NCBI GenBank assembly: GCA_947650285.1
Contig: CANTFL010001403.1
Coordinates: 124,001 to 188,000 of the forward strand
Length of the DNA stretch: 64,000 nucleotides
From: Hyaloperonospora brassicae
Lineage: Eukaryota > Oomycota > Peronosporomycetes > Peronosporales > Peronosporaceae
Reading direction: 5' to 3'
Made by a program: the position numbers and the translations under genes
The notes under the pieces: model-generated
What the model was told of the DNA's origin: nothing
Database searches by the model: none
What the model saw: the letters and a program-made list of their open reading frames with translations, nothing else
Part shown: piece after piece, positions 10,472 through 27,596 of the stretch
How the letters are laid out: each line of letters begins with the position of its first letter
Position numbering within the stretch: the stretch's first letter is position 1

Positions 10472-10944
10472 TGTAACGGGGTTACACGTCGGCTGGTAGC
10501 CGACGATAGGTGTGGTGCACACACGAGAGGGGGGTACCCTATACGGTAATATTAGAACACAGTGAGCGTATCAATTGTTGAAGACTGGTGTCTGTCATCA
10601 ATTGATTGCAAGATCTTTTAAGAGGTTATTTAGGGCAGGTTAAATACGTTGTTCTAAGGTGTTCTTTTAGGTTAAATGAAGAAATAAAATTCAGTTCCCA
10701 TTTTGATCAACATAAGACACGTGCCTTACGAGGCGTCTTGATCGGAAGAGCTAGCAACGCCTGTAAAGGTAGCTACTCTTGAGCACTCTGTGCTGTGATT
10801 CATTTAAATCGTTTGGTCCCCCTGGAACAGGAACCGTAAGCTCTCTGAGCTTGTTGACTCTCTGAGTCGGGTTCGTAGAACCAAAGTTGCTCGTAAGAGC
10901 GTTAAGTCTTCCTCTAACTTAAGGAGCTGTGTATCTCTGCTACA
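10472..10944 (+). repeat. G1 5' LTR
   Basis: 473 bp, TG...CA ends. Compared with the 3' LTR it differs by scattered substitutions and by a cluster near 10812-10823. It contains consecutive hairpins, for example arms 10487-10494/10498-10505 (8 bp, 3-nt loop) and 10510-10514/10518-10522. Confidence 0.95.
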
Positions 10945-10946
10945 CT

Positions 10947-10963
10947 TGGTAGCACTCGTAGTC
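10947..10963 (+). other. G1 primer-binding site
   Basis: Two bases after the 5' LTR the sequence TGGTAGCACTCGTAGTC begins with the TGG that pairs with a tRNA CCA end. The same 10-base core TGGTAGCACT occurs at the matching place in G2, so both elements probably use the same tRNA primer. The tRNA identity is not determined. Confidence 0.75.
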
Positions 10964-11003
10964 AATCTACACCTGAGTCGGTAACGACTGATCCTCTGCG
11001 AGG

Positions 11004-12038
11004 ATGGAGCAATCCGCACCCCTATCTGAGGCTCAAAAGGTCGCGCTTGATAAGCTGACCGCGGCCGTAGGCCTAGAGTATGTGTAGTTTCTAGCTGCAC
11101 AGGGTCCCGATGTGCTCAACGCACGAGTCGAGGCCTTTATGCAGTATGAAACGGCCCTGTTGGGCCAGGTTCAAAACCAAGTAGCGTCGGCTATGCCGAC
11201 ACGCTACGTGGCTATGCCACCAGAAGAGGCTAAGCCTCGTCCCCTTCGGGTGGACGTTAAACTTTACTCCGGGAAGGAGGGGGAAAACTTGACCCTCTGG
11301 ATCCGTGAGATTGAGATGGCCATGGACTCTGGTCTCATCTCACTAGAGAACCAGCGGGTCTCTTTTGCCATCTCTAAGCTCATTGGTAGAGCTAGAGAGT
11401 AGGCTTTGACGTGTGGCACGTCGGTCAAAATGGCATTTCCCACGTGTACATCGCTCAAGTTAGACCTCATGCGAGTTTTCTCGCCGCCTAACCAGGCATA
11501 TCGCGTGCGATCACGCTTCTTATCAACCCGTCAGGGTAAGAGCGAGTTAACGGACTATGTCCAAGAGTTGAGAACTCTAATGGCTGCTATGCAGTCTGAC
11601 CCTCTCTCTGAGACTGTCTACGTGACAGTCTTCATGGAAGGTCTCCGCACTGGCGTGGCCAGAACCGAGGTTTTTCGGGTTCATCCCTCTACTTTTGAGG
11701 AAGCTGTGAGCGTCGCTCAAAATGCTGAGCACAACTTCAAGTCGGCCAGACTTGGTTGGAAGGGGTACAACCCAAGCTTTGCGAGGGCGGCCTCTGCGAG
11801 GACTTCGGCTTACTGTAAGCCAGAACCGATGGATCTCAGCCATGCTGAAGATGAAGGCGAAGCGGAGCTTCATGTTGCGGAGCAACGACAGGATGTGAGA
11901 CGCTGTTACATGTGCGGAAGCACTATTCACTTGCGTCCCACTTGTCCTTTGCGTAAGCAACAACCGACTCCTATGAGTCGAAACCCCAGCCTCAACCAGA
12001 AACCTGGTATGGCACGGGGAAACTTCGACACCCAGTAG
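11004..12038 (+). pseudogene. G1 gag (two in-frame stops)
   Basis: Reading from the ATG at 11004 gives a 344-codon gag interrupted by TAG at 11085 and TAG at 11400. The second stop replaces the Trp of a GRAREW block (TGG to TAG). The retrotransposon capsid region lies at about 11240-11770, with FSPPNQAYRVRSRFLSTRQG and ELRTLMAAM. A zinc knuckle CYMCGSTIHLRPTC (C-x2-C-x4-H-x4-C) near 11911-11952 would bind the element RNA. The downstream stop at 12036-12038 separates gag from pol. Apart from the two stops the frame is continuous, so inactivation is recent relative to sequence decay elsewhere. Confidence 0.9.
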
Positions 12039-12094
12039 GCGCGGGGTGCCCTACTGGGGTAGAACTAAGTTCTGTCTCATCTCTACGAGATAAA

Positions 12095-12505
12095 GTGAAA
12101 CAGGGCTTAGCCCCACTTAGCGCTGTGCTAGCCAGCACAGAGCGTGGATACAAGCCTGGCTTGTTGGCCGCCGAGGCGACAGTAAAAGGCTTTGAGAAGC
12201 CGTGGTCGATTTTAATCGATTCAGGAGCATCATGTAACTATGCTCGACGTCGCTCCCTTGAGGGAAGTCAGCGATACGCTGAAGCGCTCAAAGCGCACGA
12301 AGGTGATTCGATCACCGTTCGTTTAGCGACTGGTAGTCGCGTCACGGTGCCTAAAGTTCCGTTGAAGTTAGGTGTGAAGTTTTGGACTTTGACAGCATTG
12401 AACGTTGTCTCGTCCTCGATTTGGATTCGAGATATGATCTCATCCTGGGTATGGCTTGGCTTGAACGCCATGAGCCATGGATTGATTGGAGGACTAAGAC
12501 CTTAG
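12095..12505 (+). pseudogene. G1 protease domain, frameshifted
   Basis: The retropepsin active site appears as LIDSGASCNYARRRSLEG (DSG triad) at about 12214-12265. Near 12380-12384 one base appears to be lost: the domain continues in the next frame as DFDSIERCLVLDLDSRYD and ILGMAWLERHEPW, the usual second half (ILGMxWL). In the original frame the sequence drifts to a stop at 12503. A Ty3 aspartic protease would process Gag-Pol; this copy could do so only by frameshifting, and I see no classic slippery heptamer to support a programmed shift. Confidence 0.85.
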
Positions 12506-26105: not shown

Positions 26106-26181
26106 TTCGCTCAGTACTGTTTGGTACTGGGCGTGGAGAAGTACACTCGTATGCGCAGTGCCCTAACTTCTGACAGCGATT

Positions 26182-27159
26182 CTACTTCTGCAATCGCTTG
26201 TTGTTCGAAGAGCGAGGTCTCTCGCTATCAACATAGCAGAGTTCCATTGGTTCTGGACCTCCGATCTCTTGTCGTCTCAGTGGACGATAAGATTTTGAGC
26301 TAGCATGAGCCTGTCTCATGCTAAATTCTTCCTGTTCCGCGGCTGATATCGCTTCTTCAAGCGTATTCAGCTCAAGGCGGAACAGGTGGCTCCTGAAGGG
26401 CCCTTCTGCGAGCTCTTGCATGAGCACCGTAATCAACGTGTGTTCATGGACTGGGTAAGCAGTTATACTACTCGCGAGGAGTCGTATATGTGGAGCGTAA
26501 GCGTGCACATCACGCTTGCCCTGCTTGAGTTTCAGGAGCTCTGAACGAGCCCTGAACTCAGCCCGTGGCGGCTCAAACGTTTGTCTGAGCCGGGACTTGA
26601 AGTCATCTAGCGACCTAAACACATGTGGGTCGCTACTCTCGAGCACCAGGGACCAAGTTTTAACACGTCCTGCCAAGTAGGTTTGATCAAATGTGAGTTT
26701 CATTTGCTCATCTTCGACGCGACGAGCCCTTAGGGCTCTGTCGAGTTCGACAAACCATAGTAACAGGGAGTCTTCCAGGACTCCACTGTACTTGGAGATG
26801 TCAACTTTCATGACTTCGGGACGACGCGCATGTGCCGTCCCGCCCACAGCAGCATGGAATTGCTGCTGTCTCAGCAGCTCTGTCTGTTGAGATCCGAGTT
26901 CTCTCAACTGCTCGGCCTGTTGAGAGCCTTGCTGATGAAGCAAGGCTACTTTCTCCCTTTCGGCGACAAGTTCATGCTGTATGAACTTGGCGACAGCGGC
27001 ATGTAGTTGGTCTCTGTCTAAAGACTCCAACATGGCGCTAATGACGAACTCGCCTACGGTAGATCTTATATGGTCTACCGCACCCCATTCGATGTACCTC
27101 AAATGGGTAAACCCTTCACGTGTGGCGTGAGAGGTCTCTTCATCATCCAACATGTTCAT
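26182..27159 (-). pseudogene. G2 gag
   Basis: ATG at 27157-27159 opens a 325-codon gag. The N-terminus carries a coiled coil (QLRELGSQQTELLRQQQF), then the capsid domain (DSLLLWFVELDRALRARR, LKLKQGKRDVHAYAPHIRLL). The stop TAG at 26182-26184 falls exactly where the first Cys of a zinc knuckle would be, because NRCQKLGHCAYEC follows in frame. Apart from that stop the frame is clean. Confidence 0.85.
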
Positions 27160-27185
27160 GTTGGATGCTGTGGTCCTTGGAAGGA

Positions 27186-27202
27186 CTACAAAGTGCTACC
27201 AG
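27186..27202 (-). other. G2 primer-binding site
   Basis: On the minus strand TGGTAGCACTTTGTAGTCC lies right after the 5' LTR. It shares its first ten bases with the G1 site. Confidence 0.75.
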
Positions 27203-27203
27203 G

Positions 27204-27596
27204 TTTAACGGGGCACACCCTTGCGTGAGCTTAACGCAAGGGTTTTGGTGCGCCCGACAGACGTACACGAGGTAAACGAGGAAGCGTAGGTAGGGTAAAA
27301 GCAGAACTGTTATATTAATATAATTAGGTTTTTAATCACTGTCTCTCTGTTCGACTTAGCTTAATTATACTAATCTAACTGAGTGTATGGTGACGTCTCG
27401 TCACCACTCATTGCGCGCGTCTTGCGGCGATTGGTGGGTTGGTATCGTCAAGATATCAACCAATGAGCAGACTCTTTGGTCGACCCATCAATATCACCAC
27501 TATTGGTGATATTGTTAAAATAATATTCAACATGATATTCTTTATTGTCATTATCTCTCAAATGACAATTTCCATGTAACGGGCTGCCCCGTTACA
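27204..27596 (-). repeat. G2 5' LTR
   Basis: 393 bp, the 5' LTR of the minus-strand element. Starts (minus) TGTAACGGGGCAG and ends at 27204 (TTTAACGGGG on the plus strand for TGTAACGGGG). Followed at 27597 by the TSD ATGAA. Confidence 0.95.

What the first reader, a model, noticed from the sequence alone, without database searches (positions are those of the whole stretch)
10472..27596. Two Ty3/gypsy elements are saturated with short near-perfect hairpins
Reading G1 and G2 base by base, one meets a new inverted repeat every few tens of bases, in LTRs and in coding DNA. Verified arm pairs in G2: 22212-22222/22227-22237 (11 bp, 4-nt loop); 23110-23119/23133-23142 (10); 23142-23148/23154-23160 (7); 23258-23268/23271-23281 (11, 2-nt loop); 23283-23289/23295-23301 (7); 23303-23310/23321-23328 (8); 24060-24069/24074-24083 (10); 26608-26615/26628-26635 (8); 26847-26854/26861-26868 (8); 27144-27154/27157-27167 (11). 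In G1: 10487-10494/10498-10505 (8), 12859-12864/12871-12876 (6) and many 5-7 bp pairs in pol. By simple arithmetic a 10-bp arm pair with loop up to 12 nt is expected about once per 90 kb of random DNA; G2 has many in 8 kb. The LINE relic and host genes (FYVE/GAF, MON2) show nothing like it by eye. The reading frame still encodes recognisable pol, so structure seems imposed through codon choice. Genome-scale ordered RNA structure is known in some RNA viruses; here it could aid packaging, block silencing or be a mutational product such as template switching in reverse transcription. I know of no description for oomycete gypsy elements.
Basis: partly seen in the sequence, partly recalled or inferred. 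Interest (0 to 1): 0.93.

Follow-up and report, generated by a model that had tools for sequence, protein, structure and literature searches.

The report
Retrotransposons packed with family-sized hairpins
Two retrotransposons in what is likely an oomycete genome carry tiny perfect hairpins along their sequence far beyond chance, with a typical stem length that differs between families, probably kept by selection and likely used as docking points for the element's own packaging protein.

Summary
All 12 listed arm pairs are exact. G2 has 70 perfect inverted repeats with arms of 8 bp or more; dinucleotide shuffles average 1.2. Mean folding z is about -5 on both strands of G2, -2.3/-2.65 in G1, 0 in a host ORF. 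Twenty further copies carry 74-118; the number falls with copy age (rho -0.90). Against synonymous shuffles the dominant arm length differs by family: G1 5 bp, a third family (G3) 8-9, G2 8-10; two copia frames and a host ORF show no clear excess. At fourfold-degenerate sites shared variants are three times rarer in arms, rare variants equal. Shared changes in arms are mostly one-sided (67 against 8 double), which disfavours arm-to-arm copying. Pairing is wobble-poor and equal on both strands, more so than in MS2 and Qbeta. My reading: selection keeps stem-loops of a family-typical length, likely sites for the element's own Gag. RNAi evasion and single-stranded cDNA folding remain open. Ten full-text searches found no report of this.

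The parts
19630..27595 (-). G2, an older Ty3/gypsy copy of the hairpin-saturated family; ends approximate
   Evidence: LTR pair 95% alike over 300 nt (alignment); 70 arms>=8 vs 1.2 in shuffles; z about -5 on both strands
27205..27595 (-). G2 5' LTR (approximate), with its own 10-11 bp hairpins
19630..20023 (-). G2 3' LTR (approximate), with hairpins at 20000-20023
26182..27159 (-). G2 gag ORF (Retrotrans_gag)
   Evidence: PF03732, E 1.1e-8
24885..26105 (-). G2 protease ORF
   Evidence: PF08284 RVP_2, E 1.5e-9
22593..23591 (-).
   Evidence: PF17917 and PF17921; hairpins
21643..22473 (-). G2 ORF with SH3_Tf2-1 domain (integrase C-terminal part)
   Evidence: PF24626, E 1e-13
22211..22238 (-). hairpin, 12-bp arms, 4-nt loop
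23258..23281 (-). hairpin, 11-bp arms, 2-nt loop
24060..24083 (-). hairpin, 10-bp arms, 4-nt loop
25512..25537 (-). hairpin, 12-bp arms, 2-nt loop
25805..25830 (-). hairpin, 12-bp arms, 2-nt loop
27144..27167 (-). hairpin, 11-bp arms, 2-nt loop
10473..18130 (+). G1, a young Ty3/gypsy copy of the 5-bp-hairpin family; right end at least here
   Evidence: LTR pair identical over 300 nt (alignment); z -2.28/-2.65; family copies L044 and L045 show the 5-bp arms
11406..12038 (+). G1 gag ORF
   Evidence: PF03732
12382..15069 (+). G1 reverse transcriptase / RNase H ORF
   Evidence: PF00078, PF17919, PF17917
15085..16323 (+). G1 integrase ORF, after RT and RNase H as in Ty3/gypsy
   Evidence: PF17921, PF24626; PF00665 below its cut-off
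18690..19100 (-). LTR piece of G2 type (77% to the G2 LTR), 4 arms>=8 vs 0.12 in shuffles
8700..9500 (+). hairpin-rich stretch, 6 arms>=8 vs 0.1; likely another G2-type LTR piece by its hairpin letters (not aligned)

Best explanation
G1 and G2 belong to different Ty3/gypsy families that each carry, along their sequence, short Watson-Crick stem-loops of a family-typical arm length, probably kept by selection on pairing and likely serving as dispersed binding sites by which the element's own Gag nucleocapsid packages and condenses its RNA. Shown: the excess over synonymous and dinucleotide shuffles; the dominant arm lengths 5 (G1), 8-9 (G3) and 8-10 (G2); fewer shared variants in arms than elsewhere, also at fourfold-degenerate sites; a small number of compensated double changes; loss in older copies; hairpin positions mostly different between families, with the same gauge in two members of the G3 clade. 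Untested: any protein binding and any RNA structure in cells.
For: Excess: G2-family frame of L022 67 arms>=8 vs 1.62 in 100 synonymous shuffles (max 6), folding energy 45.7% below shuffles, z -35.9. Gauge: G1 (L044) 5-bp arms 108 vs 32.2, nothing clear from 7 bp up; G3 (L049) 8-bp 21 vs 0.8, 9-bp 11 vs 0.2, 10-bp 2 vs 0.2; G2 (L022) 8/9/10-bp 21/17/19 vs 1.0/0.4/0.1, then 3 of 11 and 3 of 12. A second G3-clade member (L052, 891 of 1297 aa identical) has 7, 7 and 6 arms of 7, 8 and 9 bp and none of 10. Conservation: fourfold sites, variants shared by >=3 of 30 copies 10/242 in arms vs 70/581 elsewhere, p 2.6e-4; rarer variants 76/242 vs 186/581, p 0.93. Double Watson-Crick changes shared by >=3 copies: 8 (6 if the two LTRs count once), against 0-3 with the partner slid by 1-3 nt. 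G3 clade: 6 of 30 hairpins stay perfect, three of them through double changes. Age: rho -0.90 between private divergence and hairpin number in 22 near-full copies. Loops 4-5 nt commonest, 0-1 nt in 5 of 131. Reader: one CCHC motif in each of three loci, L022, L044, L049; Ty3 packaging needs UTRs and POL (PMC11381356, passage). Hairpins with arms>=7 are evenly spaced in G3 and G3b.
Against: Sense and antisense fold alike and G.U pairs are scarce in all three families, not what a reader of sense RNA alone needs. Shared one-sided changes in G2 arms are 12 G.U, 26 A.C, 29 others, so sense wobble is not favoured; in the G1 comparison it is 16 G.U to 8 A.C, in G3 23 to 19. No loop motif; loops are only mildly A-rich, purine excess p 0.02 in G2 and not significant in G1, G3, G3b. 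The gauge is not exclusive: with loops of 3-6 nt, arms of 5-6 bp are also in excess in G3 (47 vs 19.7) and G2 (48 vs 19.5). Even spacing fails for G3 arms>=8 and for G2, and G1 is clustered. In noncoding and gag DNA rare variants are also slightly fewer in arms (200/972 vs 502/2107, p 0.047), and at codon positions 1-2 the shared-variant difference is not significant (27/934 vs 95/2328, p 0.13). Arm substitution between G3 and G3b is only a little lower than elsewhere (0.314 vs 0.351; reverse 0.250 vs 0.354). No binding data.
Confidence: 0.37

Rival explanations
1. Silencing evasion: both sense and antisense element RNA are kept folded in stems too short for Dicer-like enzymes, so that the strands would not anneal to double-stranded RNA and guides would find few open sites.
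For: Strand-symmetric, wobble-poor folding; stems rarely above 11 bp, the limit one paper gives for viral ordered structure (PMC3950689, passage); folding against strand annealing is established for Qbeta-replicase RNAs (PMC6913131, abstract and introduction); Phytophthora small RNA loci lie largely on retrotransposons (PMC3804510, passages).
Against: A host-wide pressure does not predict a different dominant arm length per family or its weak or absent signature in the copia frames tested. MS2 and Qbeta, which copy through both strands, do not show the arm-length pattern, and four of their five regions lose z when G.U is forbidden.
Confidence: 0.25
2. cDNA-level folding: the hairpins act in single-stranded DNA made during reverse transcription, for example to compact or protect it.
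For: Strict Watson-Crick pairing with G.U not favoured; in G2 A.C states, which are wobble pairs on the minus strand, outnumber G.U 26 to 12 among shared changes; loop sizes of a single strand.
Against: A.C does not outnumber G.U in the G1 (8 to 16) or G3 (19 to 23) comparisons; rare variants in G2 are 162 to 151. No known need for such folding.
Confidence: 0.15
3. Mutational origin: reverse transcriptase folds back and copies one arm onto the other, making and maintaining perfect arms without any benefit.
For: Would explain Watson-Crick strictness, strand symmetry, absence of motif, presence in LTR and coding DNA and an element-specific length. One G2-family hairpin (L022 3303) differs by three adjacent bases in one arm only between G2/L009 and the others. 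Template switching is proposed for coding palindromes of nematomorph mitochondria (PMC6649704, passages).
Against: Copying should turn one-sided changes into doubles or back. Among 20 low-divergence copies 45 one-sided shared states stand against 5 doubles (4 if the LTRs count once), with about 136 changed pairs expected at the non-arm rate; among all 30, 67 against 8, expected 195. Imperfect stems are in excess (32 vs 0-3 in five shuffles). Neither arm is nearer to an outgroup (p 0.15, 0.89, 0.72, 0.57), a weak test at 47-49% protein identity.
Confidence: 0.13
4. General folding of sense RNA as in viral ordered RNA structure, selected for overall stability or compactness and not for a stem length.
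For: Folding energy well below synonymous shuffles in all three families.
Against: Selection for stability alone does not predict that G1 lacks arms of 7 bp and more or that G3 shows no excess at 4 bp, nor that forbidding G.U strengthens z.
Confidence: 0.1

Closest known systems
[quoted passage not shown]
   Same: Structure through the whole coding genome, seen against sequence-shuffled controls; stems reported not to exceed 11 bp (PMC3950689, passages).
   Different: The highest value in that paper's table as seen in the passage is 16.0%; the G2 family gives 44-47% by my shuffles, which differ in method. Here it is an LTR retrotransposon, with near-perfect stems, few G.U pairs and a family-typical arm length.
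ssRNA phages MS2 and Qbeta
   Same: Strong folding in coding regions of both strands: 25-34% below synonymous shuffles on the sense strand, 16-37% on the antisense. G.U share also below shuffles there (7-27% sense, 14-40% antisense).
   Different: Only small excesses of perfect arms of 7 bp or more (for example 5 vs 1.0 in the Qbeta replicase), no dominant arm length, and z falls when G.U is forbidden in four of five regions.
Dispersed packaging signals of RNA viruses
   Same: Many stem-loops spread over the genome and read by the coat protein (PMC6281560, passages).
   Different: Those share a recognition motif; none was seen here, and binding is untested.
Coding palindromes of nematomorph mitochondria
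   Same: Perfect inverted repeats inside functional genes, mostly different between species (PMC6649704, abstract and passages).
   Different: Repeats there are far longer (mean 43 bp, up to 142) with no excess of imperfect ones; here arms are 5-10 bp and imperfect stems are in excess.
Yeast Ty3 genomic RNA
   Same: Ty3/gypsy element whose RNA was probed; packaging needs UTRs and POL (PMC11381356, passages).
   Different: The passages I read describe a well-folded core and no array of equal hairpins; Ty3 itself was not run through my counts.

Membership tests
Ty3/gypsy LTR retrotransposon | Paired LTRs | tested here: met
   G1 pair identical, G2 pair 95% alike over 300 nt
Ty3/gypsy LTR retrotransposon | gag, protease, RT, RNase H, integrase with integrase last | tested here: met
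   G1: gag, RT, RNase H, integrase in that order (protease not found among the ORFs scanned). G2: gag, protease, RNase H, integrase zinc-binding; its RT stretch was not scanned
Genome-scale ordered RNA structure | Folding energy below shuffled controls (over 3%) through the genome | tested here: met
   G2 44-47%, G3 13-17%, G1 15-17% in coding frames; G2 window by window
Genome-scale ordered RNA structure | Positive-strand RNA virus genome | tested here: not met
   Domains and LTRs of a retrotransposon
Genome-scale ordered RNA structure | Structure formed by RNA in cells | not testable with these tools
   Needs chemical probing
Dispersed packaging signals | Many stem-loops over the genome | tested here: met
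Dispersed packaging signals | Shared recognition motif in the stem-loops | tested here: not met
   No repeated arm or tetraloop class found; a loose motif is not excluded
Dispersed packaging signals | Binding by the coat or Gag protein | not testable with these tools
   Only a CCHC motif was found in each family
Template-switch (quasi-palindrome) mutation | Multi-base change making one arm complement of the other | tested here: inconclusive
   One candidate with three adjacent changes (L022 3303) among 22 variable hairpin entries, some overlapping
Template-switch (quasi-palindrome) mutation | Mismatches between arms removed by conversion | tested here: not met
   One-sided shared changes 67 against 8 doubles; imperfect stems in excess

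The most novel reading that the evidence does not exclude
Ty3/gypsy families of this oomycete each write a hairpin ruler into their entire sequence: Watson-Crick stems of one typical length (5, 8-9 or 8-10 bp), renewed at new positions as sequences diverge and read by the family's own protein. That would be a structural code laid over the genes, with no described counterpart in retroelements.
Probability: 0.33. Interest if true: 0.93.

Novelty: new variant of a known kind. Interest (0 to 1): 0.86.

Why it matters
Ordered structure across coding genomes is known in some RNA viruses and its purpose is disputed. Here it appears in high-copy retrotransposons, in one family far stronger than the viral values I could read, and with a different typical stem length in each family. 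Many copies of different age record how such structure is kept and lost, so packaging, silencing evasion and mutational origin become testable by comparison and by simple binding assays. It also warns that codon choice in such elements may answer to structure as much as to translation.

Tried and rejected
Chance or base composition: rejected by dinucleotide and synonymous shuffles. Shared arm sequence: not seen in G1 or G2; G3 arms are GC-rich (69%). One-way arm copying: no asymmetry against outgroups. Conserved hairpin positions between families: 7 of 78 centres vs 4.8 expected (G2 to G3), 1 of 68 vs 0.6 (G2 to G1), 6 of 38 vs 4.3 and 1 of 35 vs 0.3 the other ways. GNRA or UNCG tetraloops: no preference. 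G2 and L009 as an informative sister line: their shared differences fall equally on arms (35/1890) and elsewhere (93/5368), so the line looks unselected. Relatives in viral contigs: none matched. Five busy answers to one search, answered. Mended after checking: searches counted as 'WC' or 'WCdouble' any Watson-Crick state other than the majority, which included one-sided changes; one search recounts against the reference state and its numbers are used. In one search the null of fully identical windows was badly built and is not used. In one search the age correlation (-0.71) included flanking DNA of the reference copy; one search corrects it to -0.90.
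Full report
Observation. Across the window, perfect inverted repeats concentrate in G2 and in two short stretches of G2 type. G2 has 70 arms of 8 bp or more (mean of 40 shuffles 1.2, maximum 5), G1 has 5 (mean 1.12, maximum 4), a host ORF none; the region 53-64 kb also has 5 (mean 1.9, maximum 5). Folding z-scores in 200-nt windows average about -5 on both strands of G2, -2.28 and -2.65 in G1 and near zero in the host ORF.

Identity. Both elements are Ty3/gypsy by LTR pairs and domains. The assembly that holds the window has 100.56 Mb in 898 contigs, and 121 matches to the G2 RNase H/integrase protein were scored there out of 6276 candidates. Among the 120 listed protein relatives of 1181, the named ones are Peronospora, Phytophthora and Globisporangium, so the host is likely an oomycete. 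G1 LTRs are identical over 300 nt and those of G2 95% alike, so G2 is the older insertion.

Other copies. Twenty further copies of the G2 family hold 74 to 118 arms of 8 bp or more per locus of 7.2-8.5 kb. In L022, used only as a coordinate reference, hairpins with arms of 6 bp or more tile half of the locus, and a 1.2-kb stretch folds at -568 kcal/mol. Loops of 4-5 nt are commonest and loops of 0-1 nt rare (5 of 131), the geometry of a single strand. Hairpin number falls with private divergence, used as age (rho -0.90 over 22 near-full copies; 8 partial rows of 30 left out).

Codon choice. In the long frame of L022, 67 arms of 8 bp or more stand against 1.62 in 100 synonymous shuffles (maximum 6), and folding energy is 45.7% below the shuffles, z -35.9. 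In one further run L022 gives 43.6%, the window's G2 ORF 37.2%, G1 16.1% (window) and 14.8% (L044), a G1-like locus 12.7%, G3 13.0%, three copia frames -1.5, 4.2 and 0.3%, and four host or unassigned ORFs -0.3, 4.3, -2.5 and 1.8%. Two of these controls reach z about -2.8 (copia L041 and the ORF at 5116-7236).

The gauge. Exact arm lengths separate the families. G1 (L044) has an excess of 5-bp arms (108 vs 32.2), with less at 4 (171 vs 114.7) and 6 (18 vs 8.8) and nothing clear from 7 up; L045 and the G1-like L037 agree. G3, a third family met through a Globisporangium protein (locus L049), has 8- and 9-bp arms (21 and 11 vs 0.8 and 0.2) and none in excess at 4. G2 has 8, 9 and 10 (21, 17, 19 vs 1.0, 0.4, 0.1), then 3 of 11 and 3 of 12. 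A smaller excess of 5-bp arms is present in G3 (64 vs 39.4) and G2 (63 vs 36.6) too, so the gauge is a dominant class and not an exclusive one. A second G3-clade member (L052) has 7, 7 and 6 arms of 7, 8 and 9 bp and none of 10. Two copia frames and the host ORF show no clear excess at any length.

Selection or mutation. Thirty copies were mapped on L022. Variants shared by at least three copies occur at 3.3% of arm sites, 10.7% of loop sites and 7.5% of other sites; rarer variants at 24.1, 27.0 and 26.8%. At fourfold-degenerate sites the shared class is 10 of 242 in arms and 70 of 581 elsewhere (p 2.6e-4), the rare class 76 of 242 and 186 of 581 (p 0.93); in noncoding and gag DNA 28 of 972 and 210 of 2107 (p 2.4e-13), with rare variants 200 and 502 (p 0.047); at codon positions 1-2 the difference is not significant (p 0.13). 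So arms are conserved in replicating lines beyond protein constraint. Recounted against the reference state, 8 shared pair states are double Watson-Crick changes (6 if the two LTRs count once; 0-3 when the partner is slid) and 67 are one-sided (12 G.U, 26 A.C, 29 others), where about 195 changed pairs would be expected at the non-arm rate. Among 20 low-divergence copies it is 5 against 45, expected 136. Arm-to-arm copying would resolve one-sided changes, so it is at most a minor part. Imperfect stems are in excess (32 in L022 vs 0-3 in five shuffles), the sign of a contest between protein and pairing that the nematomorph paper looked for and did not find (PMC6649704, passages). Against this, one hairpin differs by three adjacent bases in one arm, as copying would make it.

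Turnover. Between G2, G3 and G1, at 47-49% protein identity, hairpin centres coincide about as often as by chance, and neither arm is nearer to the outgroup. Between the two G3-clade members 6 of 30 hairpins stay perfect, three of them through double changes, and the rest turned over. Between L022 and L049 protein identity is lower in arms (0.43-0.45) and loops (0.43) than outside hairpins (0.525), so hairpins sit where the protein allows, or cost it something.

Which strand. With G.U forbidden the z-scores become stronger in all three families (G2 -28.9 vs -23.9, G3 -12.8 vs -9.5, G1 -11.3 vs -7.1), the G.U share of pairs is 32-56% below shuffles, and antisense folds as well as sense. In MS2 and Qbeta, tested likewise, forbidding G.U weakened z in four of five coding regions; their G.U share is also below shuffles, but less (7-27% on the sense strand), and they are themselves strongly folded, 25-34%. 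G.U against A.C differs between families (G2 12:26; G1 16:8; G3 23:19), so no strand is singled out. This is the main result against a reader of sense RNA alone.

Mechanism. A host-wide force would be expected to give one gauge; the gauges differ, so I infer an element-encoded reader. Gag is the likely one: each of three loci has a single CCHC motif, and in yeast Ty3 packaging needs UTRs and POL (PMC11381356, passage). Hairpins with arms of 7 bp or more are more evenly spaced than random in G3 (coding frame, 0.0005 of random draws as even) and G3b (0 of 2000), which suits an array of sites; this fails for G3 with arms of 8 or more, for G2, and for G1, which is clustered. Silencing evasion fits the short stems and strand symmetry; cDNA folding fits the strict pairing. 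Neither is excluded.

Limits. G3 rests on one 7-kb and one 4-kb locus, copia on three coding frames (two for the gauge), and no second host species could be read at DNA level. Ten full-text searches of an open-access library found no description of such elements; most subscription papers and preprints are not held there.

Noticed in passing
L040:538-657 (similar in L041:537-657, L042:112-233): Copia-bearing loci hold a short cluster of TGACGTCA-type palindromes in tandem, 5-6 arms of 8-9 bp within about 120 nt; possibly a promoter array.
   Followed up: no
window 12795-13034: Tandem 120-nt duplication (92% alike) inside the G1 RT/RNase H ORF region.
   Followed up: no
window 10473 and 27595: LTRs of G1 and G2 both begin near the same letters (GTAACGGGG), although the families are far apart.
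   Followed up: no
L049 and L052: Hairpins with arms of 7 bp or more in the G3 clade are spaced more evenly than random (mean 121 and 201 nt between centres).
   Followed up: partly
window 28001-64000: One 200-nt window folds at z -11.3 on the minus strand, outside both elements; not located further.
   Followed up: no
window 32322-32352: Isolated perfect hairpin with 11-bp arms in the AT-rich stretch.
   Followed up: no
L022 3303-3328 against G2 and L009: Three adjacent differences in one hairpin arm only, the kind of change that template switching would make.
   Followed up: partly
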